Source: Campylobacterales bacterium (GTDB lineage: Bacteria; Campylobacterota; Campylobacteria; Campylobacterales; Sulfurimonadaceae). Taken from it: 64,000 bases of DNA. Positions 1 to 63,651 of this stretch are shown piece after piece. Location: positions 124,001-188,000 of the forward strand of contig JAFGUB010000008.1 of the NCBI GenBank assembly GCA_016938735.1. The letters run 5' to 3'. Numbering within the stretch: the first letter of the stretch is position 1; each line of letters opens with the position of its first letter. Under the pieces are notes generated by a model that worked only from the letters and a program-made list of their open reading frames with translations, searched no databases and was not told the origin of the DNA. The position numbers and the translations under genes are program-made.

Positions 1-1154
1 ACCACACCGCTAAGGTAGTCGGTGTTGGGGATCGAGAGGATGTAGGGGTGATCCGCGTCGGCGCGCAGCAGCTCCAGCACTTCAAGCATCACCCCCTCTT
101 GGGTGCCTACATGTAAGGCCAAAGTGAGCAACTCGCCGATACCTACATGGTGCGAACATGAAAAGAGCGCCACGATCCCCTGATCTTCGAGTATCTTCAC
201 CGCCGAAGCAAGCAAAAAGCCCATCCCCTTCATCGCCCCCTCCACCTCGCGCTTGGTTTTGGCAAAAGGGGGCGGATCGAGCACGATCAGATCATAACGC
301 GTAGCGCTTGCGACCTGAGCCTCCATGAAGTCAAAAGCGTCTGCCTTGGTGATGGTCTGCGGCGCGAAGCCGTTACATGTAAGGTTTTGCGCTACCTGGA
401 CGAGCGCACTGTCGCTCATATCCACAAAATGGACACTCGCCCCTTCGCGCAGGGCGTGCAGCCCAAAACCGCCCGCGTTGCAAAAGCAATCCAGCACGCG
501 CATACCGCCGCGCACATAACCCGAGACGACATGACGGTTGCGGCGCTGATCGAGGTAAAATCCGGTCTTTTGCCCCGCGTGCAGATCCACCTCGAAAGCG
601 ACGCCGCGCTCTTGCATCACCACGCGCTGCGGCACTTCGCCCCAAATCACGCCGCCGGCGCTCTCAAGACCCTCTTTGCGGCGCATCTTGGCATCGGACT
701 TTTCGATGATCCCTTTGGGCTGGGCAACGGCAATAAGCGCATCGATGATCCAAGGGCGCAGGCGCTCCATCCCCAGCGTGTTGATCTGCAAGGAGAGATA
801 ACCGTTGTAATAATCCACCATGAGTCCGGGCAACATATCGGCTTCGGCGTGGACGATGCGGTAAGCATTGCTTTGGCGTGCCAGATCGCTGCGCTTGTGC
901 CATGCGCGCTCTATACGCTGAGCCATAAACGCCGCGTCGATGCTACGCTCCTCAAACGACAAAACGCGTACCGTAATCTCGCTTGCGCCGTTGTAGTAAC
1001 CGATGCCCAAAAATGCGCCGCCGTGAGATTCGATGCGCACCCTATCACCGTCTTGGATCGCCTCGTCGTACGCGGCTATTTCGTTTCGGTAGACCCAACA
1101 AAAACGGCTCTGGAGTTTATGGCTTGAGGCTTTGGTAACGCGAAGGGTATGCAT
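1..1154 (-). CDS. RlmI-like class I SAM-dependent rRNA methyltransferase, C-terminus cut by window edge
   Basis: Translated from an ATG at 1154, the frame stays open to base 1, giving about 384 residues. This is close to the usual 390-400 of the RlmI family, so only a short tail is missing. An N-terminal PUA-like RNA-binding segment (residues 1-70) is followed by a Rossmann methyltransferase with VLDCFCNAGGFGLHAL near residue 220 (SAM binding) and DPPPF near residue 300. The family methylates a cytosine C5 in 23S rRNA; the exact target here is inferred. The gene contains two TACATGTA copies (108, 374), read as LHV and TCN. A third copy sits just upstream, and its trailing AA joins AGAG to form the likely ribosome binding site. 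Confidence 0.85.
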   Translation of the reverse strand, partial: MHTLRVTKASSHKLQSRFCWVYRNEIAAYDEAIQDGDRVRIESHGGAFLGIGYYNGASEITVRVLSFEERSIDAAFMAQRIERAWHKRSDLARQSNAYRIVHAEADMLPGLMVDYYNGYLSLQINTLGMERLRPWIIDALIAVAQPKGIIEKSDAKMRRKEGLESAGGVIWGEVPQRVVMQERGVAFEVDLHAGQKTGFYLDQRRNRHVVSGYVRGGMRVLDCFCNAGGFGLHALREGASVHFVDMSDSALVQVAQNLTCNGFAPQTITKADAFDFMEAQVASATRYDLIVLDPPPFAKTKREVEGAMKGMGFLLASAVKILEDQGIVALFSCSHHVGIGELLTLALHVGTQEGVMLEVLELLRADADHPYILSIPNTDYLSGV

Positions 1155-1162
1155 GGGACTCT

Positions 1163-1172
1163 TTACATGTAA
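1163..1172. repeat. TTACATGTAA palindrome in the 5' leader of the RlmI-like gene
   Basis: A perfect 10-base palindrome lies 9 bases upstream of the start at 1154. Read on the minus strand it runs into AAAGAG, a plausible Shine-Dalgarno sequence. It is a non-coding member of the dispersed TACATGTA family. Confidence 0.9.
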
Positions 1173-1211
1173 GGGATTGCGGTCAAAAAACCGCGTTGAA
1201 AGCATATCAAG

Positions 1212-2354: not shown

Positions 2355-3397
2355 GCAAAAAACTCAATCGGTGCGCTGCGCTGGAGCTCTTCAGGATGCC
2401 AAAAAAGCAAAATCGTGTCGATATCGCTGATGATGGAAACATCGAAAAAGTTGAGCCGTTCCAAATCCGCATCGGGCAACGTGGTCTGCCAGTCGCGCAG
2501 CATGTTCAAAAAGCTCTCAAGAATGATCAGCAACTGCTCTCTTGAGCACTCATCGCTGTTCAAAGGTTCATGCAGCATCGTCTGGGCAAATTCCCCGATC
2601 CGCCCCCCGAGACGCTCAAAAAAGTTGTAATACGCGAGCGTGGAGCCAAAATGCTGCAATAAAACGCCAAACTGTTCCGACAGGCTCTTAAAATCTTGCT
2701 CGCCACGCACATAGGTGCCTAGATGCTCCTCCATCGCATCGATGACCATGCGAAGCTCCTCAAGATCATCGCGGATGAGATAGCGGATCTGCTCTTCATA
2801 GCGTTCGCTTTGTCCATTGGTCTTTACCGATAATTGCGGCGTTACATGTAAGGCCACTTCATACTTCGACAAACGCGCCTGTAGCACACGCATCTCTTTG
2901 CGAAATCGGCGATTTTCGGCACAAAGCGTTACGTTATCTTGCTCCGCTCGTTCAAGATGCATCTGCAGCAGCTTTCGTTCCGTGATCGCTTTGGCAACTC
3001 GATACAGTACCCCGGAAAACGGCTCCAACTGCAGCGGCTTGATGATAAACGAAGCGACGCCAAGCTCAATCGCATCGATCAGATTTTCGACCTCGTTGTG
3101 GGCAGAAAGCACAATAACGCTCTGCTCCTGTCGCAACGCGAGCATCTCTTTGATCATCTCAATTCCGCCTTTACGCGGCATATTCAGATCGGCGACAACC
3201 AGATCGTAATAATGCCCTTCACGTTTGAAATACTCCACAAAACGTGCGATGCCCGCCACGCCGTCGCCGGCTGTATCGACACGCTTAAAATAGTCCTCCA
3301 TCAATTCAGCGGTGCTCAGACGCATGGCCAAATCATCTTCGACATAAAGAATGTTCAAGGTCCGCGTATACTCGCGCAACAGATCGATCTGCATCAC
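2351..3397 (-). CDS. Response regulator with receiver domain and uncharacterised C-terminal region
   Basis: The 348-residue protein starts with a CheY-like receiver: acidic residues in YVEDD near residue 20, phosphoacceptor Asp in VVADLNMP near residue 70, conserved Thr/Ser region IVLSAHNE and Lys in IIKPL near residue 120. A coiled-coil-like stretch and a helical C-terminus follow, with no recognisable DNA-binding or enzymatic domain, so the output is probably protein-protein. It precedes and overlaps its cognate kinase gene. A TACATGTA copy inside (2843) is read as LHV. A TACAAT-type -10 and an AGAGGTGA ribosome binding site precede the ATG. Confidence 0.85.
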   Translation of the reverse strand: MMQIDLLREYTRTLNILYVEDDLAMRLSTAELMEDYFKRVDTAGDGVAGIARFVEYFKREGHYYDLVVADLNMPRKGGIEMIKEMLALRQEQSVIVLSAHNEVENLIDAIELGVASFIIKPLQLEPFSGVLYRVAKAITERKLLQMHLERAEQDNVTLCAENRRFRKEMRVLQARLSKYEVALHVTPQLSVKTNGQSERYEEQIRYLIRDDLEELRMVIDAMEEHLGTYVRGEQDFKSLSEQFGVLLQHFGSTLAYYNFFERLGGRIGEFAQTMLHEPLNSDECSREQLLIILESFLNMLRDWQTTLPDADLERLNFFDVSIISDIDTILLFWHPEELQRSAPIEFFA

Positions 3398-3516: not shown

Positions 3517-3523
3517 CGAGTAA

Positions 3524-6304: not shown

Positions 6305-6314
6305 TTACATGTAA
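6305..6314. repeat. TTACATGTAA palindrome between the SIMPL and HD-GYP genes
   Basis: A perfect palindrome starts four bases after the SIMPL stop codon, in the context GCCTTACATGTAACG. It is one of the non-coding members of the dispersed family. A TACAAT-like -10 for the next gene lies about 35 bases further on. Confidence 0.9.
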
Positions 6315-6380: not shown

Positions 6381-8282
6381 ATGCTCTCCGCAATAAAGCG
6401 CAATAATCTGCGCCATATCGTGCTGATTCTCTTTGTGGTGCTCTCCATTTGGACGCTTTTTACCTATCTCATCGGAAAAAGCGTCATCGATCAACAAGCT
6501 AACGACGCCTATCTGATCAACATCAGCGGCAAACAGCGGATGCTCTCGCAACGCACAGCGCTCTTGGCCCAGCGCCTGCACACAACGGCACAAGCGGACC
6601 TGCGCCGCTCTTTGAATCAAGCGCTTGAACTTTTTGAACAAAATCACCGTTATTTAATGAATGCAGTCGACACATCGGAGTTACGTACGCTCTATCACAA
6701 GGATGGCCTTGATACCAAAGTGCAAGCCTATCTGGAGCTTCACCGGCGTTACATGTACACCCCGTCTGCGCCGCTGATCGAAGAGATACTCGATACCTCA
6801 AACACCCTTTTGCCGGTGCTCGACCAAGCGGTCGGTCTCTTTGAGCAATCAAGCCGCCAAAAACTTTCCAAGCTGAGCCGCTACAGGCTGCTGATCTACT
6901 CAGGCAGCTTTATGACCCTGCTCTTTGGCCTTGTCGTGATGCTGCGTGAACTCAACACACCCGATCACACCTACAACCTCAGCCAGGACGAAACACTGCG
7001 CCGCCTTTTTAGAGAGCGGCGCAACTTCTATTTTCAGGGGCTCTGGATCGTCTTGATCTATCTGCTGATCTCCGGCGCTTGGATCTACTTTTCCGATGCG
7101 CTGCTGCTGCATCTGGTCGCCAGCGTCGAAGAGCTTCATACCTTACAAACCATCAAGGGCCTGCTCTTCGTACTTGCCTCCTCTTTGCTGCTGGCACTGC
7201 TCATTATTCTGTTTGTCAAGCGCATCATCGGATACATCGATCTGATCATCAAAAGCAGCGAAACCTCTAAAGCCTTGCAAGCAGAGAAGCTACGCGACTA
7301 CCAAGCTACCCTCGAAGCCCTCTCAAGCCTCATCGACTCACGCGACAGCTACACGGCAGGACACAGCCAGTGCGTCGCCCGCTATTCCCAAATAATCGCC
7401 CAGGAAATGGGAGTGTCTCAAAGTGATCAAGATCTGATATGGCGCGCGGGATTGCTACACGATATCGGCAAAATCGCCATTCCCGACTCCATTTTGCTCA
7501 AGCCAGGCAGCCTCAGCGGTGAAGAGTACACCATCATCAAGGAGCACGCCCGTATCGGCGCAGAGATTTTGCGCATGATCCCCGGTAGTGAAGCGTTGGA
7601 TCAGATCGTGCTGTGCCACCACGAACGCCATGACGGTTCGGGTTATCCCAATCATCTTGCGGGCGAATCAATCCCTTTACCGGCGCGGATCATGTGCGTG
7701 GCCGACTCTTTTGATGCAATGACGACCACCCGCATCTACCGCCGGTCTAAAAGCGTCGCCGAGGCACTTGAAGAGCTTAAAAGCTTGCGGGGCAAACACT
7801 ATCATCCCGATGTGGTGGATGCCGCGATGATAGCGCTTCAAGCAATCTCGATTGACACCACGATTTCACAATTACCCAAAGATGTGATCGAAAATGAGCG
7901 GATGTCGTACTACCTCAAAGACCAACTCACCGGAGCCCAAAACGAACACTTTATCGAGCTGCTGATGGCTAAGAACACCTTGCATCTCTACCACTACGCC
8001 CTCTCAATCGGGCTTGCAAATTTCAACCACTACAACCAAAGCCACGGCTGGAAGGCGGGAGATCGAATGCTGCAGCGGATCGTCGCACATCTGCACACCC
8101 TTGCCCCCAATGCCTTACTGATTCGTTACCATGGAGACTCCTTTATCCTGCTGTCCCTTGAGACTCTTGACACCGAAGCCCTGCTTCAGGGCTTAAACGA
8201 ACTGATCGCACCCGAAGCGATCCATATTCGCTCTCGATCTATCAACGTGCAAGAGATTCCAAGTGTCATTGAGGGAATCTAG
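6381..8282 (+). CDS. Membrane HD-GYP c-di-GMP phosphodiesterase with PilJ-like sensor and degenerate GGDEF tail
   Basis: The 633-residue protein has membrane helices near residues 13-35, 170-190, 222-240 and 255-275. Its periplasmic segment carries NISGKQRMLSQRTALLAQRL, as in PilJ/NarX-type sensors. The HD-GYP domain (about residues 310-480) is intact: LLHDIGKIAIP and HHERHDGSGYP. HD-GYP enzymes hydrolyse c-di-GMP to GMP. A C-terminal GGDEF-like region (about 515-633) has only GDSF at its signature and is short, so it is probably not a cyclase. The gene ends in TAG and overlaps the convergent radical SAM gene by 17 bases. One TACATGTA (6750) is read as YMY. Confidence 0.9.
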   Translation: MLSAIKRNNLRHIVLILFVVLSIWTLFTYLIGKSVIDQQANDAYLINISGKQRMLSQRTALLAQRLHTTAQADLRRSLNQALELFEQNHRYLMNAVDTSELRTLYHKDGLDTKVQAYLELHRRYMYTPSAPLIEEILDTSNTLLPVLDQAVGLFEQSSRQKLSKLSRYRLLIYSGSFMTLLFGLVVMLRELNTPDHTYNLSQDETLRRLFRERRNFYFQGLWIVLIYLLISGAWIYFSDALLLHLVASVEELHTLQTIKGLLFVLASSLLLALLIILFVKRIIGYIDLIIKSSETSKALQAEKLRDYQATLEALSSLIDSRDSYTAGHSQCVARYSQIIAQEMGVSQSDQDLIWRAGLLHDIGKIAIPDSILLKPGSLSGEEYTIIKEHARIGAEILRMIPGSEALDQIVLCHHERHDGSGYPNHLAGESIPLPARIMCVADSFDAMTTTRIYRRSKSVAEALEELKSLRGKHYHPDVVDAAMIALQAISIDTTISQLPKDVIENERMSYYLKDQLTGAQNEHFIELLMAKNTLHLYHYALSIGLANFNHYNQSHGWKAGDRMLQRIVAHLHTLAPNALLIRYHGDSFILLSLETLDTEALLQGLNELIAPEAIHIRSRSINVQEIPSVIEGI

Positions 8283-9138
8283 GTTTCAGCCCAAAACGCT
8301 CTTTATAACCGCAGCTTTGGCATAGCGCTTCAACTGCCCTACCCTCTTTAAATCCCTGTACAATCGCCTGTGCACGCGGTGTTTGCAAAATCGCCTCCAG
8401 AGTCGCATCCGCAAGTGAGCCCAGCGTCATCACTCCGTCTTTATCCAGACAACACGGCACCACCCGACCATCGGCCAACACTCCGATCTGCTTTGAAAGG
8501 CCATGGCAGGTGCCATCGCTTCGGCGCTCTAAGGCTAGATCGGGCCATTCGAAGTAGCGGTCATAATGGAGCAGCACATGGCGTGAGAGCCTCAGCGATC
8601 CACCTGTATCAAGCGTACATGTAAAGGCTTTTTCAAGATAATCAATCACCCTCTCATTAAACGCCGCTTCACTCCCCATATCATCCAGGTTCCAGAGCCG
8701 AAGATTGATAAAACTCTCGCCACCTTGATCAATCTTGGCACGGCAAATCTCTATGATCGGCTCCATGTAGTGTTCAAAAGAGTCTCTGGGCGGATTTTTA
8801 TTGAAGCTGTTGAGCGAAAAGTTAAGCTGACGGATCACACTATGCGTCAGTGTGCCAACGCTGTGACGGCGGGTATAAAAACCGCTGGTGGTGAGCATTA
8901 CGCGCATCTCATACGCGCCACACAGATCAAGATAGTCGTGCAGATGACCCAGCGTCAGCGGATCACCCACTACATGTAAGGCCACTTCGCGCGTGTAGGG
9001 GCGCAGCTGCTCCAGCACCCGTTCAAAGAGCGCCAGCGGCATCGTTAGCGGCGGCAGTGTCTTGGGCGGACAGAAGCTACATGTAAGGCCGCAGACGTTC
9101 GTGATCTCGACATAGGCGCGCACAAAATGCGCACTCAC
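8266..9138 (-). CDS. Radical SAM/SPASM-like protein
   Basis: The 290-residue protein has the radical SAM cluster motif CGLTCSFC (CX3CX2C) at residues 15-22 and a C-terminal cysteine group (PCCLDKDG, then CQSCGYK), as in SPASM domains that hold extra iron-sulphur clusters. The substrate cannot be inferred; no obvious peptide substrate gene is adjacent. Its ATG overlaps the stop of the GGDEF-EAL gene by four bases, placing it last in that operon. Three TACATGTA copies (8616, 8971, 9078) lie inside. The one at 9078 encodes the Thr-Cys of the cluster motif, so the repeat supplies a catalytic residue. Confidence 0.85.
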   Translation of the reverse strand: MSAHFVRAYVEITNVCGLTCSFCPPKTLPPLTMPLALFERVLEQLRPYTREVALHVVGDPLTLGHLHDYLDLCGAYEMRVMLTTSGFYTRRHSVGTLTHSVIRQLNFSLNSFNKNPPRDSFEHYMEPIIEICRAKIDQGGESFINLRLWNLDDMGSEAAFNERVIDYLEKAFTCTLDTGGSLRLSRHVLLHYDRYFEWPDLALERRSDGTCHGLSKQIGVLADGRVVPCCLDKDGVMTLGSLADATLEAILQTPRAQAIVQGFKEGRAVEALCQSCGYKERFGLKPRFPQ

Positions 9139-15994: not shown

Positions 15995-16004
15995 TTACAT
16001 GTAA
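15995..16004. repeat. TTACATGTAA palindrome in the leader of the TrmN-like gene
   Basis: A perfect palindrome lies between the -10 (16015-16020) and the start codon (15986). It begins about 10 bases after the -10, so it should overlap or directly follow the transcription start. Confidence 0.9.
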
Positions 16005-16041: not shown

Positions 16042-16764
16042 ATGATCATCATCCCCGCCCGCATGGCCTCTACCCGTTTTCCCCAAAAAGTGCTTGCCGA
16101 TATCGGAGGCATTCCCATGGTGGTGCGTACCGCCCAGAGGGTTGCGTCGCTTGACCGCGTGGTCGTCGCGGCCGACGATGAGGCGATTTTGCGTACATGT
16201 AAAGCCTACGGCGTCGAAGCGATGCTCACCTCCGATACCCACAAAAGCGGCACCGACCGCATCAACGAATGTGCGGAGATTGTAGGCGTGGGGGATGATG
16301 AGCTGATCATCAACGTCCAAGCCGACGAACCCTTTATCGAAACGGAGGTCGTGCACGCGCTCATGCAACGGCTGCGCACACTTCAAGCGCAAGCGGAGCC
16401 TTTTATCATGGCAAGCTGCTACAACGCCATCAACGAAGCCTCCGCCCAAGATCCCAACCTTGTCAAAGTGGTCCTTGATGCCCATCACAACGCGCTCTAC
16501 TTCTCACGCGCAGCCATCCCCTACAACCGCAGCGGCGCGGCGTATTACTGCGGCCACATCGGCATCTACGGCTTTGACCGCCGCTCACTGCGTGCTTTTT
16601 GCGCCTTTGACGACGCACCGCTAGAAGACATCGAAAAGCTCGAACAGCTCCGCACCCTCTATCATGGTCAAAAAATCAGCATGGTGAAAGTTGCCAGCAC
16701 CGGCTTTGGGATCGACACGCCCGAAGATTTGGCGCGTGCCAAGGAGATTTTTCAGATCCGCTAA
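16042..16764 (+). CDS. kdsB: 3-deoxy-manno-octulosonate cytidylyltransferase (CMP-KDO synthetase)
   Basis: The 240-residue protein begins IIIPARMASTRFPQKVLADI, the nucleotide-binding signature of the family, and contains VQADEPFI and AAIPYNR. It activates KDO with CTP for lipopolysaccharide inner-core synthesis in the cytoplasm. A GAAGGA ribosome binding site precedes the ATG. It is transcribed divergently from the trmN-like operon and its end overlaps the convergent 68-residue gene by four bases. A TACATGTA copy (16194) is read as TCK. Confidence 0.95.
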   Translation: MIIIPARMASTRFPQKVLADIGGIPMVVRTAQRVASLDRVVVAADDEAILRTCKAYGVEAMLTSDTHKSGTDRINECAEIVGVGDDELIINVQADEPFIETEVVHALMQRLRTLQAQAEPFIMASCYNAINEASAQDPNLVKVVLDAHHNALYFSRAAIPYNRSGAAYYCGHIGIYGFDRRSLRAFCAFDDAPLEDIEKLEQLRTLYHGQKISMVKVASTGFGIDTPEDLARAKEIFQIR

Positions 16765-16967
16765 CGCGCGGGGGTAATGGTGATCGCAAAACCTTCCATG
16801 TTCTCAGAGAGGCTGAAGCGGTGCTTGTGGCAGAAATTTGAATTCATGATACGCAGCATCGACTCTGCCTCCTCTTTGGCCTCTTGTTTGGTGCCAAACT
16901 CCGAAAACGAACTGAGTCCGCTTTTGAGAAAACAGCTACAACCGTTGTGAACCGTTACGCTATACAT
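16761..16967 (-). CDS. Small conserved-looking protein, function unknown
   Basis: The 68-residue protein (MYSVTVHNGCSCFLKSGL...) has a CSC near the N-terminus, a helical middle and a C-terminal FAITITPAR. The start is supported by AGGAGG spaced 6 bases upstream. The ATG is the centre of a TACATGTA palindrome. It follows the response regulator gene by 9 bases and is probably the last gene of the chemosensory operon. I do not recognise the family. Confidence 0.65.
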   Translation of the reverse strand: MYSVTVHNGCSCFLKSGLSSFSEFGTKQEAKEEAESMLRIMNSNFCHKHRFSLSENMEGFAITITPAR

Positions 16968-16970
16968 GTA
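16963..16970. repeat. TACATGTA containing the start codon of the 68-residue gene
   Basis: The central ATG of the palindrome (16967-16965 on the minus strand) is the start codon, with AGGAGG just upstream. Confidence 0.85.
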
Positions 16971-32704: not shown

Positions 32705-32731
32705 TATAATGCACCTCTTACATGTAAAGGA
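32705..32731 (+). promoter_or_regulatory. Promoter, TTACATGTAA palindrome and ribosome binding site of the Rrf2 gene
   Basis: TATAAT occupies 32705-32710, the palindrome 32718-32727, and AAAGGAG 32725-32731. Transcription would start about at the palindrome's left edge, so a protein bound there could block initiation or the start of elongation. The Rrf2 protein encoded next is one candidate binder. Confidence 0.6.
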
Positions 32732-36404: not shown

Positions 36405-36414
36405 TTACATGTAA
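36405..36414. repeat. TTACATGTAA palindrome between convergent DHH and amidase genes
   Basis: A perfect palindrome fills most of the 15-base space between two convergent stop codons, where a promoter role is unlikely. It argues against a purely promoter-linked function for the family. Confidence 0.9.
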
Positions 36415-45795: not shown

Positions 45796-47049
45796 TTACA
45801 CAAGACCTAACAATGAGACGAAAAGCACCGGCGGTGTTACGATCAGCCCCACTTTCATATATTGCCACCACGTGATTTTTACCCCTTTTTGAGCCAGTAC
45901 ATGTAACCAAAGCAGGGTCGCCAGCGAGCCGATGGGGGTCATTTTCGGTCCCAGATTACAACCGATAATATTGGCATAAGCCAGTGCGCCCTGTCCTGCT
46001 TCGGCAATGGCGATATCCATGATCATCACCGTGGGCATGTTATTCATTACAGAGCTCAGCACGGCCGCCAAAAAGCCCGTACCGATCACCGCCACTGCGT
46101 CACCCTGAGCGGAGAGTGTTTGAATCACTCCGGCAAGATAGGTGGTCAGCCCCGCATTTTTAAGTCCAAAAACCACGATGTACAATCCGATGCTAAACCA
46201 CACCACCTGCCACGGCGCGGTTTTGATGGTCATCATCGGCTTGGTGGCTTTAAAATAGGTCGCAAGCGCCAGAAACAGGAGTGCGCCGCCCAGTGCAAAG
46301 AGGGATACCGGCAGATGATAGGCATCGCCGATAAAATAGCCCACCAAAAGCAGCGCCAAAAACCACCAACTAAGCCGAAACATCGTCATATTTTTGATAA
46401 CCGATTCAGGTGCGGCGAGGCGCTCAGTGTCTACATGTAAGGGAATATCTTTGCGGAAAAAGAGCCACAGCACGGCGACAGAGGCGATAATAGCCAGCAG
46501 GTTTGGCACAAACATCGCCTTGGCATATTCCCAAAATCCGATCTGAAAATAGCCCGCCGTCACAATGTTGGTAAGGTTGGAAATGATGAGCGGATTGCTC
46601 GCACTGTCCCCGATAAAGCCGCCTGCCATCAAAAAAGCGAAGATGGCGACGGGGTTCATTTTGAGGTATTTCATCTTGGCCAACACGATAGGGGTGAGAA
46701 TCAGCGCCGCGCCGTCGTTGGCAAAGAGTGCGCTCACCAGAGCACCCAGCAGCAGCATGTAGACAAACATCAGATGCCCGTTGCCGCGTGAGAGCCGCGC
46801 CATCTTCAGTGCCGCCCACTCAAAAAAGCCAATCTGATCCAGCACTATAGAGAGGATGATAATCCCGATAAACGCCAGAGTCGCGTCCCAGACAATGGCG
46901 GTGACGGCAATGACATCAGCAAAACTGACCACTCCAAGCACAAGCGCCGCAATAGCCCCCATGACGGCGGAGGTGCCGATCTGAAGGCCGCGCGGCTGGG
47001 CAATAATCAAAATGAGCGTCACGATAAAGAGCGCGATAGAGAGAAGCAT
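45796..47049 (-). CDS. arsB: ArsB-type arsenite efflux permease
   Basis: The 417-residue membrane protein with about 12 helices has the ArsB/NhaD-like signature region ALFANDGAALILTPIVLAKMKYL near residue 105 and GFIGDSASNPLIISNLTNIV near 140. It exports arsenite/antimonite using the proton gradient. I take the second ATG, which is 6 bases after AAGG; the ATG at 47055 is the alternative. Two TACATGTA copies are inside (45898, 46432, both LHV) and one is in its leader. It is divergent from arsR. Confidence 0.9.
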   Translation of the reverse strand: MLLSIALFIVTLILIIAQPRGLQIGTSAVMGAIAALVLGVVSFADVIAVTAIVWDATLAFIGIIILSIVLDQIGFFEWAALKMARLSRGNGHLMFVYMLLLGALVSALFANDGAALILTPIVLAKMKYLKMNPVAIFAFLMAGGFIGDSASNPLIISNLTNIVTAGYFQIGFWEYAKAMFVPNLLAIIASVAVLWLFFRKDIPLHVDTERLAAPESVIKNMTMFRLSWWFLALLLVGYFIGDAYHLPVSLFALGGALLFLALATYFKATKPMMTIKTAPWQVVWFSIGLYIVVFGLKNAGLTTYLAGVIQTLSAQGDAVAVIGTGFLAAVLSSVMNNMPTVMIMDIAIAEAGQGALAYANIIGCNLGPKMTPIGSLATLLWLHVLAQKGVKITWWQYMKVGLIVTPPVLFVSLLGLV

Positions 47050-47494: not shown

Positions 47495-47892
47495 AAAAAG
47501 TTCTGATTCTCTGCACCGGCAACAGTTGCCGCTCCATTATGGCCGAAGCACTGGTCAATGCCCGTTTGGGCGATTGCACCGAAGCCTACAGCTCCGGCGT
47601 GCGTGCCAGCGGCGCGGTGAACCCAAACGCCAAAGCACTGCTGGAGCGCAAAGGGCTTTGGCGCGACACCTACCGCTCCAAAGTGATCGATGAAGTGCTG
47701 GATCAGCCTTTTGATCTGGTCGTCACCGTCTGCGATCACGCCAAAGAGACCTGCCCGATGTTTCCCAAAGCCATCAAAACCTTACATGTAGGCTTTGACG
47801 ACCCTAGCGGCAAAGAGTTTGGCGAGTATGAAAAGACCCTCTCACTGATCGAGTCCGAACTGCTGCCACGCATCAAAGAGGAGCTGTGCTAA
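47491..47892 (+). CDS. arsC: Arsenate reductase, thioredoxin-coupled low-molecular-weight phosphatase type
   Basis: The 133-residue protein has the P-loop CTGNSCRS near residue 8 and the CX6C pair in VTVCDHAKETCP near residue 80, the three-cysteine relay of thioredoxin-linked ArsC. It reduces arsenate to arsenite for ArsB export. The ATG at 47491 overlaps the arsR stop. A TACATGTA (47783) is read as LHV. Confidence 0.93.
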   Translation: MKKVLILCTGNSCRSIMAEALVNARLGDCTEAYSSGVRASGAVNPNAKALLERKGLWRDTYRSKVIDEVLDQPFDLVVTVCDHAKETCPMFPKAIKTLHVGFDDPSGKEFGEYEKTLSLIESELLPRIKEELC

Positions 47893-48834
47893 GTGTGGCA
47901 TGAGCTTAGCGGCGCCATCATCGCATGGCTTGGGCTCAGCGGCAGGCTCGGTGACGCCGCGCACTTTTTTCTCTACGATACGGTGAAAATCTGGGCGCTG
48001 CTGCTCTTCATCATCTTTGCGGTGAGCTTTTTGCGCACCTGGATGAACGTGGAAAAAGTGCGCGCCTATCTGGCGGGCAAACGCGAATTTAGCGCCAATA
48101 TTCTTGCAGCGCTCTTTGGCATCATCACCCCCTTTTGCACCTGTAGCGCGATTCCGCTTTTTTTGGGCTTTTTACAGGCGCGCATTCCCGTCGGCGTCAC
48201 CTTTAGTTTTCTCATCTCTGCGCCGCTCAATAACGAAATCGCCATTGCGATGCTCTTTGGGCTTTTTGGCTTTAAGATCACCGCGCTTTACATTGGGTTT
48301 GGGCTTGCGGTGGCGATTGCGGGCGGCTATCTGATCGGGCGGCTGGGGGTCGAAAAGTATGTGCTGATTCAGGTTCCCGTGATGCAGGGGGCTTTACATG
48401 TAGAGGTCGCCCGCCTGACACTTCGTGAGCGCGCCTATGAAGCGTGGCGCAACACCCGCGAGATTTTTCTCAAAATCTATCTCTGGGTGATGGCGGGCGT
48501 GGGGGTGGGCGCTTTTTTCCACGGCTATGTGCCTGCCGAGTGGATCGCCGCGTACGCCGGAGGCGATGCGTGGTACGCCGTGCCGCTCGCCGTGGCGATG
48601 GGCATCCCCATGTACGCTTCGGCTGCCGGAGTCATGCCGCTGGTGGAGGTTTTAACCCAGAAAGGAATGCTGCTGGGAAGCGCGCTGAGCTTCATGATGG
48701 CCGTCACCGCCCTCTCGCTGCCCGAGGCTATCATCCTCAAACAGATCTTACATGTAAGGCTTATCGCCTTCTTCTTTGCCATTATCGGCGCGGGAATCAT
48801 GGCGATCGGCTTTATTTTTAATGCTATTTTATAA
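47893..48834 (+). CDS. Permease of the ArsP/DUF318 family
   Basis: The 313-residue protein (GTG start directly after the arsC stop) has about eight membrane helices and the TPFCTCSAIPLFLGFL cysteine motif near residue 76 that marks this family. ArsP members export methylated or aromatic arsenicals; others are uncharacterised. Two TACATGTA copies lie inside (48395, 48749, both LHV). Confidence 0.85.
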   Translation: MWHELSGAIIAWLGLSGRLGDAAHFFLYDTVKIWALLLFIIFAVSFLRTWMNVEKVRAYLAGKREFSANILAALFGIITPFCTCSAIPLFLGFLQARIPVGVTFSFLISAPLNNEIAIAMLFGLFGFKITALYIGFGLAVAIAGGYLIGRLGVEKYVLIQVPVMQGALHVEVARLTLRERAYEAWRNTREIFLKIYLWVMAGVGVGAFFHGYVPAEWIAAYAGGDAWYAVPLAVAMGIPMYASAAGVMPLVEVLTQKGMLLGSALSFMMAVTALSLPEAIILKQILHVRLIAFFFAIIGAGIMAIGFIFNAIL

Positions 48835-49105: not shown

Positions 49106-49338
49106 AAATCGAAATTCTCGGTACCGGATGTGCCAAATGCAAAGCCCTTGAAGAAGCCGCCAAGCAAGCCGTAGCGCAGTGCGGCATCTTTGCGCAGGTG
49201 GAAAAGGTGGATGATATTCAAAAGATCATGAGCTATGGCGTCATGAGCACGCCCGGACTGGTGATTGACGGCGTAGTGAAAAGCAGCGGCAAAGCCTTAC
49301 ATGTAAACGAAATCGTCGCGCTCATTAAAGCACAGTGA
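49102..49338 (+). CDS. Small thioredoxin-like redox protein (CAKC)
   Basis: The 78-residue protein MKIEILGTGCAKCKALEE has the CxxC active site of the redox-active disulphide family often found beside ArsP permeases, followed by GVMSTPGLVIDG (cis-Pro loop). It may supply electrons to ArsC or handle arsenite-thiol chemistry. A TACATGTA (49298) is read as LHV. Confidence 0.88.
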   Translation: MKIEILGTGCAKCKALEEAAKQAVAQCGIFAQVEKVDDIQKIMSYGVMSTPGLVIDGVVKSSGKALHVNEIVALIKAQ

Positions 49339-49977: not shown

Positions 49978-49987
49978 TTACATGTAC
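49978..49987. repeat. TTACATGTAC upstream of the 111-residue membrane gene
   Basis: The core TACATGTA (49979-49986) begins 5 bases after a TAAAAT (49968-49973) that could be the -10 of the downstream gene. Confidence 0.85.
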
Positions 49988-56322: not shown

Positions 56323-57005
56323 ACACGCACCTCCTCGATCAGGCCGTCACGAAAACGGATCGTGCGCACCGCATACGCGGCCATCTCCTCTTCATGCGTG
56401 ACCATGATCACCGTAATCCCCTTGTCGCGGTTGAAGGATTGCAGCAGCGCCATCACCTCATGACTTTTGGCGGTATCAAGATTACCCGTAGGCTCATCGG
56501 CGAGCAGCACCAGCGGATCGGTCACAATGGCACGGGCGATGGCCACACGCTGCTGCTGTCCGCCGGAGAGTTCACCGGGGGTATGGTGGGCTACATGTAA
56601 GAGTCCGACGCTCTCAAGCGCCTCTAGCGCCTTGGCGCGGCGCGTCTTGGCGTCTAGCCCCCTATAAAGCAGCGGCAGCTCGACATTCTCCACCGCAGAG
56701 GTCTTGCCCAAAAGATTAAAACCTTGAAACACAAATCCCAGATAGTTGCGCCGCAGCAGCGAGCGCTGATCGCGCTCTAGCGTGCCCACATCCACCCCCT
56801 CAAAAAGGTAGCGACCGCCACTTGGCGTGTCCAGACAGCCGATGATGTTCATCGCCGTCGATTTGCCCGAACCGCTTGGCCCCATGATGGCGACGAACTC
56901 CCCTTTGAAGATCTCCAGATCAACCCCGCGCAGCGCGTACGACGTCGCCTCACCCGATCCGTAAGACTTGCTCACCTGCTCAAACGCAATGACCGCGCGG
57001 GACAT
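56319..57005 (-). CDS. MacB-like ABC exporter ATPase
   Basis: The 228-residue ATPase has Walker [10 protein letters not shown], signature [15 protein letters not shown], Walker [14 protein letters not shown] and the H-loop MVTHEEE. It belongs to the MacB/LolD group and pairs with the neighbouring permease and adaptor. A TACATGTA (56592) is read as LHV. Confidence 0.93.
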
Positions 57006-58178
57006 TCAAGGTGCCTTCAGACCGACGATGACGGCGTCGCCGGCCTTGAGCTCCGAAGATTCGATGACGCTGTAGGTGCCGTCGCTCTGGCTTACATGTA
57101 CGCCTACCTCAACCGCCTTGCCCTCGCGTAGCACCCAAAGCGACGGGCTTTTTGGCCCTTTTTGCTGCGCTTTTTTCTGCTGGGGCGGCGTAAAACGCAG
57201 CGCGGCGTTGGGGGCGCAGAGCTTTTGCTCCAGCCGCGCGGTGACGATCTGCGCCGAAGCCGTCATCCCCGGACGCAGCCGCAAATCGGGGTTGGGCACC
57301 TCCACAACCGCCTCATACGTCACCACGCCGCTTACCATCAGCGCATTGAGCCGCACCTGAGTGATGCGCCCCGTAAAGAGCGTTCCCGCGTAAGCATCCA
57401 CGCTAAAAAGCACCTCTTGGCCCTCTTTGATCTCCCCGATATCGGCCTCATCGACACTCACGATCACCTTCATCCGCTCCAGACTTTCCGCCAGTGTAAA
57501 GAGGATCGGGGTCTGCATCGACGCCGCTACCGTCTGTCCGGGTTCTACTTTACGATCCAGTACGATACCGTCGATGGGGGCGCGCACGATCGCCTTGCCC
57601 AGATTGTCGCGGTGGGTCTCCAGCTCCGCTTCAGCCTGCGCGCTTTGTGCCAAAGCCGCCTTGACCTGTGCGTCGGCGCTCAGCACTGCGTTGCGCGCCT
57701 GCTCAAGCTCCTGCTCTGAGGGAAAACGTCCTTGCGTTGATAGTGCGATTTTCTCCAGTCGCGCCGCCACGCTGCGTGCGTCCGACTGCGCAGCCTTGGC
57801 GACCGCCACATTAGCCTGCGCACGTTCAAGCGCCGCCTGAGAGCTGCGCACCAGTAATGAGAGCCGCGTGGTATCAAGCCGCGCCATCACCGCTCCCGCA
57901 TGCACCACGTCATTGTAATCCACCGGCACCTCACTGATCGTCCCTGATACCTCGATCCCCACCTCCACGCTCACCGTCGGCTCCAGATTACCCGTGGCCG
58001 AAACCGTCGTAACGAGATCGCGCAGCTCCAAAGGAGCGCTGCGGTAGACCACTTTGGGCTCGGCGTTTTGCATCCACCACTACAGCCCCGCGGCCGCCAT
58101 CGCGATCAGCGCCAAAAGCACCGCCAGACCTCTCCATTTTGAGGGTTTGACACGCAAGGTCTGCTCTACTGTATCCAT
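57006..58178 (-). pseudogene. MacA-like periplasmic adaptor interrupted by one in-frame TAG
   Basis: An ATG at 58178 after AAAGG opens MDTVEQTLRVKPSKWRG and a membrane anchor LAVLLALIAMAAAGL, then TAG (58080-58082), then in the same frame WWMQNAEPKVVYRSAPL and an intact adaptor: biotinyl-lipoyl halves (ATGNLEPTVSVEVG..., APIDGIVLDRKVEPGQTV), a helical hairpin (about residues 100-175) and beta domains. Without read-through the anchor is a 32-residue peptide. An ATG three codons after the TAG would give an unanchored, probably non-exported protein. A Trp or Tyr codon would fit the position. A TACATGTA (57093) reads VHV. Confidence 0.85.
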
Positions 58179-59566: not shown

Positions 59567-61173
59567 TGCTCTTTATTATCGTTGTTACGCTCTTTGTGTC
59601 GCTGATGATCAATATTTTCCTCAAGCGATTTGCCCTGCCGACCATCATCGGCTACATTCTCACCGGTACCGTCATCGCCTATGCGTTTGGACTGCATCAG
59701 GCGGTGAACAACCACACGCTTCAAGAGATCGCCGAGTTTGGGGTCGTCTTTTTGATGTTCACCATCGGACTGGAATTTTCACTGGAGCATCTCAAACGGA
59801 TGCGCTACGAAGTATTCGTCACCGGAACCCTACAAATCCTCATTACCGCAGCTTTAGTCTATGCAATCGGGCACTTTGTTCTAGGGCTTGAAGAGCAAAT
59901 CGCCTTTATCTGCGCACTGGCTATTGCCCTCTCCTCTACTGCCATCGTGCTTAAGACCTTCAACGAAAGCGGCGAAATCAACCGCGTGCACGGACAGCGC
60001 GCATTGGGTATTCTCATCATGCAAGACATTGCGGTCATCCCCATTTTGCTGATTATCGGCTTTATGAGCAGCAGCGACAAGGAGATCGGTGCCTTACTGG
60101 TGCATATGTTCTTCTCCGCTATAGCGCTTTTGGGGATCTTGTGGCTGAGCAGCAAATATCTGCTTGAGCCTTTTTTCGAGCAGATCGTCAAAACCAACTC
60201 CGACGAACTCTTTGTGGGTACCATTCTCTTTCTGGCCATCGGCGCATCGTATCTGGCGCACGCGATGGGATTTTCCTACTCTCTGGGGGCCTTTATCGCG
60301 GGAATGCTGATTGCCGAGACGAAGTACAAACATCAGGCCGAAGCCGATCTCGTCCCTTTTAGGGATCTGCTGTTGGGGGTATTTTTCATTACCGTAGGGA
60401 TGCAGATCAAATTTGATATCATCTTCGTGTACATGCACATCGTCTTCTTGCTACTTGTGGGGGTCGTGGTGCTCAAATTCGGCATCATCTATTTGCTGGT
60501 GCGTGCCAGAGAGAGCCGACGTATCAGCCTCAAAGTCGCCCTCTCTTTGGTGCAAATTGGGGAATTCTCACTCGCGCTCTTGGAGCTTTCACGCTCTTAT
60601 GGATTGGTACCTTCGCCCTATGGACAGATCATGATCGTCACCATCGTACTCTCCATGATCCTCACGCCCTTTATCCTCAAAAAACTACCTGCTATCTGCG
60701 ATCTGATCCTACACACCGAAGATCAAACCCCAGAAATCACAGGAGATGAAGGGGCGATCGCGGGTCATACCATCATCATCGGCTTTGGAGAGTTTGGTCA
60801 GAGCGTCGCCCAAGAGACGCTGGAGCGCGGCGAGCTCTACATCGCGCTTGATAACAACATCGAGATCTTCCACCGCGCCCAAAAGCTGGGTGCGAGCATC
60901 GTCTTTGGAAATGCCGCCAAAAAAGAGGTCTTGCTCAGCACCTACCCTCAAAAGGCCAAAAACGTCATCGTCGCCATCGACAACCCCAAAAAACTCTTAC
61001 ATGTATGCTATACCCTCCTAGAGCTGGTGGAGCATGAGCGCATTATCGTCAAGGTACACAGCAAAAAAGAGCGCGACGATCTGGCGCATCTGGGGCTGAG
61101 CAACATCATTGTCGAAAACGAGATCTCCAGCCACGCGGCCAACGCCATCATACGCGATACGCCTCTTGTCTAA
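59566..61173 (+). CDS. KefB/CPA2-type cation/proton antiporter with RCK domain
   Basis: The 535-residue protein has about 12 helices (to about residue 380) with IGLEFSLEHLKRM and ALSSTAIVLKTFNESGE, and a C-terminal RCK_N domain (about 400-520) with IIIGFGEFGQSVAQETLE, binding NAD(H)-type ligands. It is probably a potassium or sodium/proton antiporter working with NhaA in pH and salt balance. A TACATGTA (60998) reads LHV. Confidence 0.9.
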   Translation: MLFIIVVTLFVSLMINIFLKRFALPTIIGYILTGTVIAYAFGLHQAVNNHTLQEIAEFGVVFLMFTIGLEFSLEHLKRMRYEVFVTGTLQILITAALVYAIGHFVLGLEEQIAFICALAIALSSTAIVLKTFNESGEINRVHGQRALGILIMQDIAVIPILLIIGFMSSSDKEIGALLVHMFFSAIALLGILWLSSKYLLEPFFEQIVKTNSDELFVGTILFLAIGASYLAHAMGFSYSLGAFIAGMLIAETKYKHQAEADLVPFRDLLLGVFFITVGMQIKFDIIFVYMHIVFLLLVGVVVLKFGIIYLLVRARESRRISLKVALSLVQIGEFSLALLELSRSYGLVPSPYGQIMIVTIVLSMILTPFILKKLPAICDLILHTEDQTPEITGDEGAIAGHTIIIGFGEFGQSVAQETLERGELYIALDNNIEIFHRAQKLGASIVFGNAAKKEVLLSTYPQKAKNVIVAIDNPKKLLHVCYTLLELVEHERIIVKVHSKKERDDLAHLGLSNIIVENEISSHAANAIIRDTPLV

Positions 61174-61883: not shown

Positions 61884-61990
61884 GGATGCACCTTCGCTTT
61901 TTGGCAATGTAAGCAAAAAAGGTTCCACACTTCAAAACGCAATTGTCACAGACTGCATGATTTTTACTAGCAACCTAACATCCAAAGTTA

Positions 61991-61996
61991 TACAAT
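61991..61996 (+). promoter_or_regulatory. TACAAT -10 box of the AraC gene, leaderless candidate
   Basis: The box is 7 bases before the ATG at 62004, and no ribosome binding site separates them, so the transcript may start at the start codon. Confidence 0.5.
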
Positions 61997-62003
61997 AACA
62001 CCC

Positions 62004-62837
62004 ATGTATCAAATATCCACCATAGAACTGACCCATAGCAGCTTACGATCCTACATCGATCAAGTCATCTTCATCGAGCCCTCCGATGATGATACCGCCG
62101 TCGAATTCATTCAACTGCCTTTGGTGCGTGAATACCTCCTGATCAATTTCGGCAATCCCATCCATTACACCCAAGCCCCCAATAACGACCGCCGACAGTT
62201 GCGCACCGAAGGGGCCTATCTGCTGGGAAAAACCAAGCAACAACGCCGTTTTCACGTAACCCTCAATCACCCGGTAGCCTTGGTCCTCTTTAAACCGTGT
62301 ACACTCTATCTCTTCTCTGATCAAAGCGCAGCGCACTATGTCGATCGTATCGTCACCCTACCTTGCGACATCGTCCAGCAAAGCCCTGCTCATTTTGCCC
62401 AAAGCATCAACGACTACCTTGTATCGCGCTTTGTACCGCGCAACTTCGAAGAGATGGTAAGAAATAAGGTTTTCGACATCGTTCAATTTGTCCAACAGCA
62501 CTACGCCTCCATCAGCGTCGCTAAAGTAGGGCTGCGTTTTGGGCTTTCAGAGGCGACGCTGTACCGCTACTTCAAGAAGTACATCGGCATCAACCTCGCT
62601 ACATACATCAAGCACCTCAAATTCGGCGCAATGCTCCAACGGCTCTACTACAACGACTACAGCGCTGCCTCAGCGATCGAATGCGGTTTTTTCGATCAGT
62701 CGCACTTCATCAAGGAGTTCAAACGCCTCTACAGCGCACCCCCATCGGCATTTATGAAACTGCTAGAGCAGATGTTTCAAAGCAACGCTGCATCCCGCGA
62801 CCTCTTTGAGCGATGCTACATCCAATCCAGTCGCTGA
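62004..62837 (+). CDS. AraC-family transcriptional regulator
   Basis: The 277-residue protein has an N-terminal ligand-type region (residues 1-150) and a C-terminal pair of helix-turn-helix motifs: SVAKVGLRFGLSEATLYRYFKKYIG and SAASAIECGFFDQSHFIKEFKRLYSAPPSAF. Its effector is unknown. It overlaps the PAS-GGDEF gene by 25 bases and may control it. Confidence 0.9.
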   Translation: MYQISTIELTHSSLRSYIDQVIFIEPSDDDTAVEFIQLPLVREYLLINFGNPIHYTQAPNNDRRQLRTEGAYLLGKTKQQRRFHVTLNHPVALVLFKPCTLYLFSDQSAAHYVDRIVTLPCDIVQQSPAHFAQSINDYLVSRFVPRNFEEMVRNKVFDIVQFVQQHYASISVAKVGLRFGLSEATLYRYFKKYIGINLATYIKHLKFGAMLQRLYYNDYSAASAIECGFFDQSHFIKEFKRLYSAPPSAFMKLLEQMFQSNAASRDLFERCYIQSSR

Positions 62838-63651
62838 CACCCCAACTCTGCGGGATCATCCATCAGCACATCGCTATCTCTTTTATGGATACCGATTTCT
62901 GCTTTAGCAACGTCAACGCCTCTTTTTGCGAGATGATCGGTTACGACAGTGCCGAACTCCTCGGACGCCCGTTTTGCGCTTTTTGCGAAGAGCCGAACAA
63001 CTTAGTCCTTCCGATGCACCAAGAACACTCCAGCAGCGAGCTTTGCATCCGTCGCAAGAGCGGAGAGGCCCTATGATTCGGCTCCATCTGCATTCATTAC
63101 GCACCTCTCAAGATTTCCCGCACCGTTACGTCGCCATCAAAGAGAGTATTCACGAGCGTAAAAGACTCGAAACACTCGCTTCCATCGATCCACTGACCAA
63201 ACTTTACAACCGCGCCCACTTCAATGCTTTGATGGAGTTAGAGCTAAACCGCCAGCAGCGTAGCAGCCTGCACGCTTCGCTCATCTTGTGCGATATCGAC
63301 GATTTCAAAAAGATCAACGACACCTACGGCCACCTCTTCGGCGACAAAGCCCTCTCTTATGTGGCTCAAACGATCGCGCACAGCATCCGCAAACACGACG
63401 TTGCGGCGCGCTGGGGCGGCGAGGAGTTCATCATCCTGCTGCCCGACACCCAACTTGAGCAAGCCTTACATGTAGCCCAGAAAATTCGCCTTGCCCTCAC
63501 CCATGCGGAGTTTCAAAAAACCGTCACGCTCACCGCCAGTTTCGGCGTGACCCAACTACGCCGCAACGAGAATGCGACAAGCTGGTTCCACCGCACCGAC
63601 GAAGCCCTCTACAAAGCCAAACAATCGGGCAAAAACCGCGTAGCGCATTAG
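62813..63651 (+). pseudogene. PAS-GGDEF diguanylate cyclase gene split by a one-base deletion
   Basis: The PAS half (MLHPIQSLTPQLCG to RRKSGEAL) stops at TGA 63074-63076. A second frame continues from the same point with IRLHLHSLRTSQDF, a linker and a full GGDEF domain (ARWGGEEF with RxxD site RKHD). Adding one G after ctatg would restore GEALWIRLHLHSL, a normal PAS ending. The frame change is either a real mutation or a sequencing slip. A restart at the ATG at 63073 would leave a cyclase without PAS. A TACATGTA (63467) reads LHV. Confidence 0.82.

What the first reader, a model, noticed from the sequence alone, without database searches (positions are those of the whole stretch)
108..63474. 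A strongly over-represented DNA word, TACATGTA, about once per 1.9 kb
I count 34 exact copies in 64 kb against roughly one expected for an 8-mer at balanced composition. Copies occur in three reading frames, between genes and at start codons, so selection acts on DNA, not protein. The extended context is asymmetric (near GCCTTACATGTA), and the density resembles DNA uptake sequences of Neisseria or Haemophilus more than ordinary operator sites. Alternatives are a HIP1-like iterated palindrome, a methylation target or a nucleoid-protein site. I know of no such element described for Campylobacterota; the natural-transformation signal known in Campylobacter is a methylated RAATTY motif.
Basis: partly seen in the sequence, partly recalled or inferred. 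Interest (0 to 1): 0.9.

Follow-up and report, generated by a model that had tools for sequence, protein, structure and literature searches.

The report
Genome-wide iterated palindrome TACATGTA
An eight-letter DNA palindrome is repeated about once every 1.6 thousand bases through this sulfur-bacterium genome and is similarly abundant in many of its relatives, with near-misses no commoner than chance, which points to a precise genome-wide recognition signal whose job (perhaps telling own DNA from foreign DNA) is not yet known.

Summary
TACATGTA occurs 34 times in 64 kb (0.32 expected) and 1768 times in the 2.85-Mb genome (38 for the reversed control). In 699 kb it is 143-fold over-represented, while its single-mismatch variants together are not (103 seen, 112 expected). 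Flanks are symmetric, not asymmetric as claimed. At least 95 copies occur in 39 of 200 genomes of the family (Sulfurimonadaceae), in 14 of 15 of a second family (Sulfurospirillaceae) and in none of 215 other Campylobacterota sampled (maximum 91). Sister species carry an asymmetric word, AAACGCAG, instead. An HpyIM-like adenine methyltransferase is commoner in rich genomes (23 of 34) than in poor ones (5 of 35) but neither necessary nor sufficient. One plasmid backbone looks poor in the word; two small plasmids do not. By form it is closest to cyanobacterial HIP1, though one tested HIP1 trait fails. My best guess at function is self-DNA recognition in natural transformation (0.4, untested); a HIP-like epigenetic role and a nucleoid protein remain open.

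The parts
108..115 (.). TACATGTA site 1
374..381 (.). TACATGTA site 2
1164..1171 (.). TACATGTA site 3
2843..2850 (.). TACATGTA site 4
6306..6313 (.). TACATGTA site 5
6750..6757 (.). TACATGTA site 6
8616..8623 (.). TACATGTA site 7
8971..8978 (.). TACATGTA site 8
9078..9085 (.). TACATGTA site 9
15996..16003 (.). TACATGTA site 10
16194..16201 (.). TACATGTA site 11
16963..16970 (.). TACATGTA site 12
18358..18365 (.). TACATGTA site 13
19459..19466 (.). TACATGTA site 14
22450..22457 (.). TACATGTA site 15
23887..23894 (.). TACATGTA site 16
32719..32726 (.). TACATGTA site 17
35415..35422 (.). TACATGTA site 18
36406..36413 (.). TACATGTA site 19
37773..37780 (.). TACATGTA site 20
44041..44048 (.). TACATGTA site 21; conserved in L024
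45775..45782 (.). TACATGTA site 22; conserved in L024 with changed flanks
45898..45905 (.). TACATGTA site 23; TACATGTG in the main L024 alignment, intact in a second L024 alignment
46432..46439 (.). TACATGTA site 24; conserved in L024
47059..47066 (.). TACATGTA site 25; scored as not conserved, but L024 reads CTTACATGTAAGG across a one-base gap
47783..47790 (.). TACATGTA site 26; not conserved in L024
48395..48402 (.). TACATGTA site 27
48749..48756 (.). TACATGTA site 28
49298..49305 (.). TACATGTA site 29
49979..49986 (.). TACATGTA site 30
56592..56599 (.). TACATGTA site 31
57093..57100 (.). TACATGTA site 32
60998..61005 (.). TACATGTA site 33
63467..63474 (.). TACATGTA site 34

Best explanation
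TACATGTA is a genome-wide iterated palindromic recognition word. SHOWN: it is about 140-fold over-represented in the 699 kb examined, nearly Poisson-spaced there, in genes and between them, in every codon offset, and symmetric in its flanks, and exact copies are enriched while one-off variants taken together are not. INFERRED: a two-fold symmetric reader (dimer, or an enzyme acting on both strands) recognises all eight bases in an all-or-none way, and selection or recombination drive keeps exact copies. COMMITTED GUESS (about 0.4): it marks the cell's own DNA. The pilus/ComEC uptake route, as in Campylobacter jejuni with its methylated motif (RAATTY, a palindrome, recalled), would prefer DNA that carries the word, in many lineages after adenine methylation of the central CATG by an HpyIM-like methyltransferase. 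Preferential import and recombination of word-bearing DNA would then spread and maintain the word, and close species with a different word (AAACGCAG, CTCACGCA) would be isolated from each other.
For: Counts: 34/64 kb; 1768 against 38; 432 against 3.0 in 699 kb of G000, and 108 against 8.1 in 400 kb of G052. One-off variants together: 103 against 112, and 209 against 214. Flanks symmetric. Spacing in G000: CV 0.94, variance/mean 0.94 in 10-kb bins. No promoter bias. Site retention between word-rich genomes: 3 of 6 window sites in L024 (8-mer control 0.238, p 0.15) and 3 of 3 sites at comEC in G116 against G052 (control 0.231, p 0.012) with neighbouring bases changed; over all rich-rich alignments 5 of 25 site rows (control 0.077) and 4 of 7 (control 0.097). 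Alternative words, never rich together: 0 of 107 genus-g2 genomes rich in both TACATGTA (23) and AAACGCAG (20), 4.3 expected, p 0.0045 without phylogenetic correction. AAACGCAG shows no strand bias (76 to 74 relative to GC skew, my sums), as expected of uptake words and unlike Chi or KOPS. comEC in 58 of 58 genomes, with pseudopilin genes 5-10 kb away on the same contig in 20 of 21. The backbone of plasmid pSulSP carries 11 sites in 105.8 kb where about 53 would be expected at an assumed 0.5 per kb. Methyltransferase in 23 of 34 rich and 5 of 35 poor genomes. C. jejuni takes up only CtsM-methylated DNA (passages of PMC8468864).
Against: No uptake datum. USS is not palindromic and uptake sequences have over-represented single mismatches; this word is palindromic without them. 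The pseudopilin tested does not track the word: high matches to the G094 pilin are in word-poor G086, G112 and G046 and AAACGCAG-rich G145 as well as in rich or intermediate G068, G100, G150 and G184. comEC is universal, so it does not discriminate. The methyltransferase is absent from 11 of 34 rich genomes and present in 5 of 35 poor ones; inside g2 the association is not significant (4/10 against 3/24, p 0.16). Two rich single-contig genomes, G052 and G116, have none of PF01555, PF02086 and PF00145. In G019, G068, G090 and G130 the enzyme lies within about 5 kb of other methyltransferase matches, so it is not always an orphan. Only 5 of 12 phage relatives carry the hpyIM-type name; others are called fokIM (2) or LlaI methylase (1), and CATG specificity is recalled, not tested. 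Small S. diekertiae plasmids carry 14 and 13 copies, not significantly below 0.49 per kb; the 0.5 per kb assumed for pSulSP is uncertain because Sulfurospirillaceae range from 0.01 to 0.58 per kb. In G052 counts are over-dispersed (variance/mean 1.56).
Confidence: 0.4

Rival explanations
1. A HIP1-like element: the word is created and kept through a process tied to DNA methylation (epigenetic mark, methylation-dependent repair or replication control) and has nothing to do with uptake. The HpyIM-like enzyme would methylate the central CATG as cyanobacterial orphan enzymes methylate GATC inside HIP1.
For: Same form: 8-bp palindrome, palindromic extension (TTACATGTAA in 250 of 432 sites), central tetramer possibly the target of an adenine methyltransferase that has no restriction-modification neighbour I could recognise in 7 of 10 loci read. 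HIP1 also has palindromic extensions, alternates in other genomes and internal-sequence methyltransferases (PMC4390886, abstract and sections 2.4, 2.5.1 and 2.6), and scarcity of HIP1 was used as one signal of foreign genes (PMC3025956, passages). Association 23/34 against 5/35, p 7e-6, not corrected for phylogeny.
Against: [quoted passage not shown] here they are at background. 11 of 34 rich genomes lack the enzyme, two of them lack all three large methyltransferase families searched, and 5 of 35 poor ones have it. The published HIP1 model invokes mismatch repair; I recall MutS1/MutL to be missing in Campylobacterota (not tested). The other words seen in the family are asymmetric.
Confidence: 0.25
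2. Binding site of an abundant dimeric nucleoid, segregation or structural protein that needs anchoring along the chromosome.
For: Two-fold symmetry, all-or-none recognition, near-Poisson coverage of G000, low density on one plasmid backbone.
Against: No candidate protein was sought or found. Known site-specific nucleoid or segregation proteins have tens of sites, not more than a thousand (recalled). Words differ between close species, which would need reader changes. Two small plasmids carry the word.
Confidence: 0.2
3. Transcription operator or terminator element.
For: Higher density outside called genes than inside (1.15 against 0.50 per kb in G000, 0.49 against 0.25 in G052). On S. diekertiae plasmid pSDCE1, 5 of 14 copies lie within 869 bp in and around a LexA-like gene and 4 inside the methyltransferase gene.
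Against: 289 of 432 sites are inside called genes; convergent regions are denser than divergent ones in G000 (2.31 against 1.75 per kb) and G052 shows no difference on few sites; about 1 per 1.6 kb is far too many.
Confidence: 0.05
4. Statistical or compositional artefact (codon usage, repeat family, contamination).
For: None found.
Against: Dinucleotide shuffles, reversed-word control, order-3 Markov model 234 against 3.9 in 396 kb, codon-usage expectation by offset, 161 of 200 relatives with at most 90 copies by the same search.
Confidence: 0.01

Closest known systems
HIP1 (GCGATCGC) and alternate HIPs of cyanobacteria
   Same: 8-bp palindrome with palindromic extension, hundreds to thousands of copies in genes and between them, other words in related genomes, a methyltransferase probably acting on the internal tetramer in many carriers.
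   Different: Sequence and phylum differ; single-mismatch forms are not enriched; the methyltransferase link is looser and its specificity untested; the other words in sister species are asymmetric.
DNA uptake sequences of Neisseriaceae (DUS) and Pasteurellaceae (USS)
   Same: Density of the same order, dispersed, other words in related species, possibly low density in foreign DNA.
   Different: Here palindromic, without enriched mismatched forms; uptake bias and receptor unknown.
CtsM-methylated motif used for DNA discrimination in Campylobacter jejuni transformation
   Same: Same order of bacteria; a short sequence that marks own DNA; an adenine methyltransferase in many carriers.
   Different: There the motif is a short degenerate one (recalled) and methylation is required; here the word itself is massively enriched and some carriers lack the enzyme.

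Membership tests
HIP1-like highly iterated palindrome | Short palindrome strongly over-represented genome-wide | tested here: met
HIP1-like highly iterated palindrome | Extensions keep the palindrome | tested here: met
   TTACATGTAA in 250 of 432 sites; sides independent
HIP1-like highly iterated palindrome | Methyltransferase for an internal sequence generally present in carriers | tested here: inconclusive
   HpyIM-like enzyme in 23 of 34 rich, 6 of 11 intermediate, 5 of 35 poor genomes; specificity not tested
HIP1-like highly iterated palindrome | One-off sequences common | tested here: not met
   103 seen, 112 expected in G000; 209 and 214 in G052
HIP1 proper | GCGATCGC in cyanobacteria | tested here: not met
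   Different word and phylum
DNA uptake sequence (DUS/USS) | Hundreds to thousands of dispersed copies | tested here: met
   1768 in 2.85 Mb
DNA uptake sequence (DUS/USS) | Non-palindromic, orientable word | tested here: not met
   USS stated to be non-palindromic in a passage of PMC12616744, DUS recalled
DNA uptake sequence (DUS/USS) | Singly mismatched forms over-represented | tested here: not met
   published behaviour from passages of PMC1939737
DNA uptake sequence (DUS/USS) | Related species carry dialects | tested here: inconclusive
DNA uptake sequence (DUS/USS) | Scarce in foreign DNA | tested here: inconclusive
   pSulSP backbone poor if 0.5 per kb is the right yardstick; two small plasmids near chromosomal density. 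Published: reductions in islands (passage of PMC7371117)
DNA uptake sequence (DUS/USS) | Preferential uptake of DNA with the word | not testable with these tools
   Needs an uptake assay
DNA uptake sequence (DUS/USS) | Pilin-type receptor | tested here: inconclusive
   One pseudopilin tested, does not track the word
CtsM-type methylated uptake motif | A dedicated methyltransferase in every carrier | tested here: inconclusive
   The HpyIM-like enzyme is missing in 11 of 34 rich genomes; three large families are missing in G052 and G116, but other methyltransferase families were not searched
Chi/KOPS polar motif | Oriented with replication | tested here: not met
   A palindrome has no orientation; the sister word AAACGCAG is 76 to 74 relative to GC skew (sums)
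Transcription operator | Concentrated at promoters | tested here: not met

The most novel reading that the evidence does not exclude
An independently evolved self-DNA recognition code in two families of Campylobacterota: a palindromic word (optionally adenine-methylated) that gates natural transformation, with sister species using other words (AAACGCAG, CTCACGCA), so that word changes set barriers to gene exchange. It would be an origin of uptake words outside Neisseriaceae and Pasteurellaceae (that they are the only known ones is recalled), and a palindromic one.
Probability: 0.33. Interest if true: 0.92.

Novelty: new variant of a known kind. Interest (0 to 1): 0.77.

Why it matters
HIP1 has been known for decades without an agreed function (recalled). 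Here is a comparable element in another phylum, in cultured bacteria (Sulfurimonas autotrophica; Sulfurospirillum diekertiae), with rich, intermediate and poor relatives and a sister group with an asymmetric word. That makes the question of why genomes fill up with one exact word directly testable. If it is an uptake code, it would help to explain species barriers to recombination in sulfur-cycling bacteria and to make them genetically tractable.

Tried and rejected
Asymmetric extended motif: rejected. Driver methyltransferase in PF01555: no match in G000 and six other rich genomes of the 49 searched (G004, G016, G045, G052, G116, G137), nor in intermediate G029 and G124. PF02086, the HpyIM-like subfamily: associated but not required (near full-length matches at E below 1e-60 counted, partial or weak ones in G074, G110, G146, G160 and G334 not counted). 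PF00145: no tracking by eye (80 genomes). The G000 methyltransferase fragment had no NCBIfam match at 0.001 or PDB match at 0.1 and the full G094 protein only weak unrelated ones. Pseudopilin as receptor: does not track the word (capped list). Foreign islands as gaps: the largest gap in the G000 sample (window 23.9-32.7 kb) reads as chemotaxis-type proteins (my reading). Codon-adaptation quartiles: no trend in G000; in G052 the density is lowest in the most adapted quartile (0.058 against 0.354 per kb). CATG outside the word is below expectation in G000 (0.73) and G052 (0.62), but also in five genomes without the word (0.42-0.85), so it is uninformative. Word-poor genomes keep G000 or G052 sites in 1 of 86 aligned site rows against 8-mer controls of 5.3% and 10.5%, intermediate ones in 0 of 4 (rows repeat sites, and named loci without genome counts were put in the poor class).

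Literature: searches (TACATGTA, 290 papers, 20 listed, none relevant by title) listed no paper that by its title or start of abstract describes this word in Campylobacterota; only the PMC open library was searched, without preprints, and lists were capped.

Limits of counts: the gene caller is mine and crude (coding fraction 0.91, 0.82); the printed frame labels for offsets 1 and 2 are swapped, one search is right. Fisher tests are not corrected for phylogeny. The 80 genomes were chosen by me. The rich threshold of 95 copies, and of 120 for AAACGCAG (applied in g2 only), are mine.
Full report
OBSERVATION. TACATGTA occurs 34 times in the window; 100 dinucleotide-preserving shuffles give 0.32 on average and at most 2. 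In the whole genome (2,854,195 bases, 62 contigs) there are 1768 copies against 38 of the word read backwards. In 699 kb (the window plus stretches) I find 432 copies against 3.0 expected from a first-order model; on the first 396 kb, 234 against 3.9 with a third-order model. By the first-order score it is the most extreme 8-mer there; by the third-order score only its own overlap ACATGTAA ranks higher.

ANATOMY. The core is all-or-none: the 12 classes of single-mismatch variant total 103 against 112 expected in G000, single classes ranging from 0.20 to 2.04 of expectation on small numbers. Outside the core, A is preferred next to it (76%), then G (51%), then G or C, on both sides alike. Left T and right A coincide in 250 of 432 sites where independence predicts 249. 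An asymmetric reader on a palindromic core would make the sides compensate; they do not (in G052 the two sides are even positively correlated, 0.23). Spacing in G000 is near-Poisson (CV 0.94; variance/mean of 10-kb counts 0.94); G052 is over-dispersed (1.06 and 1.56). Coding sites in G000: 289, in all three codon offsets (TAC-ATG-TAx 33, xTA-CAT-GTA 173, xxT-ACA-TGT-Axx 83), 10-, 364- and 456-fold over the codon-usage expectation. Density is 0.50 per kb in called genes and 1.15 outside; convergent 2.31, divergent 1.75, co-directional 1.07 per kb. In G052 it is 0.25 and 0.49 per kb, and 0.45, 0.52 and 0.58 in the three kinds of intergenic DNA on 13 sites. This is not an operator pattern.

DISTRIBUTION. 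Records matching at the spoT locus are named Sulfurimonas, Sulfuricurvum, Helicobacteraceae or Epsilonproteobacteria bacterium, and one Nitratiruptor; the nearest is a Sulfuricurvum MAG, isolate SulCav, L024, 82-84% identical in DNA. With G052 (below) this makes the family Sulfurimonadaceae (family name inferred). Among 200 genomes of the family, 39 have at least 95 copies: all sampled of genera g1 (2), g3 (2), g5 (4) and g16 (8), and 23 of 107 in g2; the other 161 have at most 90. G052 has 611 copies and a contig of 2,153,198 bases, the length given for the S. autotrophica type strain (PMC3035374, abstract). G094 (527 copies) fits S. denitrificans by a recalled length. In the phylum sample of 249 genomes, family f10 is rich in 14 of 15 (109 to 1727 copies; one has 28); 215 genomes of other families have at most 91, that one (G414, control 21) being possibly enriched. 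A contig of f10 genome G250 matches plasmid pSDCE1 of Sulfurospirillum diekertiae at the same coordinates, so f10 is Sulfurospirillaceae. In 400 kb of G052 the word is again all-or-none: 108 against 8.1, one-offs 209 against 214, single classes 0.19 to 2.23.

OTHER WORDS. Several TACATGTA-poor relatives carry another iterated word. AAACGCAG (with AAACGCAA) reaches 1207 to 2331 copies on both strands in six g2 genomes and 124 to 566 in 14 more (my sums; G001 left out because its counts are lopsided). Stretches of eight such genomes give 128 against 7.0, though it is not among the top words in the single stretches of G161 and G180. It is asymmetric and unbiased with respect to GC skew (76 to 74, summed). 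None of 107 g2 genomes is rich in both words (4.3 expected, p 0.0045, uncorrected for phylogeny). G001 has CTCACGCA, 77 against 3.5 in 140 kb. Whether these words belong to one system is not shown.

SITE HISTORY. In pairwise alignments, 3 of 6 window sites are intact in L024 (8-mer control 0.238; p 0.15), a fourth being scored as lost only because of a one-base alignment gap, and 3 of 3 sites at comEC are intact between G116 and G052 (control 0.231, p 0.012), with the bases next to them changed (two of nine planned comparisons done). Over all alignments of word-rich genomes, 5 of 25 G000 site rows (control 0.077) and 4 of 7 G052 rows (control 0.097) are intact; against word-poor genomes 0 of 29 (control 0.053) and 1 of 57 (control 0.105). 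Sites therefore tend to sit at labile positions and to be retained in word-rich lineages. The numbers are small and rows repeat sites.

METHYLTRANSFERASES. G000 has one PF02086 enzyme next to a recO-like gene, with a gltB-like gene beyond; G002 the same; six relatives have it beside tsaD and one beside an xseA-like gene (gene names from my reading). In 7 of 10 loci read I recognise no restriction-modification neighbour; in G094 and G063 a second methyltransferase-like gene adjoins, and the neighbour in G062 is unidentified. In G019, G068, G090 and G130 other methyltransferase matches lie within about 5 kb. Five of 12 phage relatives are annotated as ulcer-associated adenine-specific methyltransferase, the H. 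pylori hpyIM name (recalled, as is its CATG specificity); two are called fokIM and one LlaI methylase. Near full-length relatives of the G094 enzyme occur in 23 of 34 rich, 6 of 11 intermediate and 5 of 35 poor genomes; 0 of 9 AAACGCAG-rich ones have one (G160 has a partial match). Within g2 it is 4 of 10 against 3 of 24 (p 0.16). Single-contig genomes G052 and G116 have none of PF01555, PF02086 and PF00145. So this methylation is at most a frequent companion.

COMPETENCE. comEC is present in 58 of 58 genomes examined. Pseudopilin genes lie 5-10 kb from it on the same contig in 20 of 21 genomes (G004 has them on different contigs), with a priA-like gene next to them in 7 of 9 loci read. One such pilin is of patchy type across species and does not track the word. 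C. jejuni discriminates own DNA by CtsM methylation (PMC8468864, passages), which is why a methyl-marked palindrome is a reasonable uptake signal in this order.

MOBILE DNA. In 200,000 of the 200,667 bases of plasmid pSulSP there are 34 copies, 3.4 expected by chance: 11 in 105.8 kb of backbone (1.6 by chance; about 53 at 0.5 per kb, a density taken from some other Sulfurospirillaceae, which range from about 0.01 to 0.58 per kb), and 12 and 11 in two near-identical copies of an organohalide-respiration and cobamide region. S. diekertiae plasmids have 14 in 39.9 kb and 13 in 38.0 kb, not significantly below chromosomal density; in pSDCE1 four lie in the methyltransferase gene and five in and around a LexA-like gene. 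Foreign DNA may be poor in the word, but this is not settled.

JUDGEMENT. That the word is real, genome-wide and kept at DNA level is close to certain. That a symmetric all-or-none reader exists is likely (about 0.85, my judgement). What it does is open: self-DNA recognition in transformation 0.4, HIP-like methylation-linked role 0.25, structural protein 0.2. By form it is nearer to HIP than to DUS: two properties of known uptake sequences were tested and not met. It may nevertheless work like one. It is also not a full match to HIP1, because one-off forms are not enriched.

Noticed in passing
G001 stretches L103, L123-L128: Third iterated word CTCACGCA, 77 seen and 3.5 expected in 140 kb.
   Followed up: partly
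G195 stretches L112, L137, L138 and G148 stretches L111, L141, L142: Weaker iterated words AGATGCTA (28 against 3.6) and CCACATGC (14 against 1.3) in 60 kb each.
   Followed up: no
G072 stretches L104, L129-L132: The tetramer ACGT is almost absent (observed/expected 0.01 in 100 kb), as under strong restriction avoidance.
   Followed up: no
G140 stretches L083-L087: Only 23 AAACGCAG in 94 kb where the genome-wide count of 2331 in about 2.6 Mb would predict about 84: this part may be foreign.
   Followed up: no
L255 (pSDCE1) 1918-2468 and 20494-21362: Nine of 14 plasmid copies fall in two clusters: inside the adenine methyltransferase gene, and in and around a LexA-like gene beside a DNA polymerase IV gene. 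pSDIE1 has two similarly spaced clusters.
   Followed up: partly
NZ_CP118374.1 about 49-143 kb (L257-L259): Plasmid pSulSP carries a large direct duplication of the organohalide-respiration and cobamide region, with IS21 copies at its borders.
   Followed up: no
L203 3797-4721 and loci L238-L245: Pseudopilins of very different types between species near comEC, with a patchy distribution.
   Followed up: partly
G000 sample, 699 kb: CAAAGAG is common mostly in one codon offset on the coding strand (429 of 444 same-strand genic copies), so probably codon-level rather than a DNA signal.
   Followed up: yes
L024 against window 45.8-47.9 kb: Parts of this window region align to two places of the L024 contig, suggesting a local duplication or assembly error there.
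   Followed up: no
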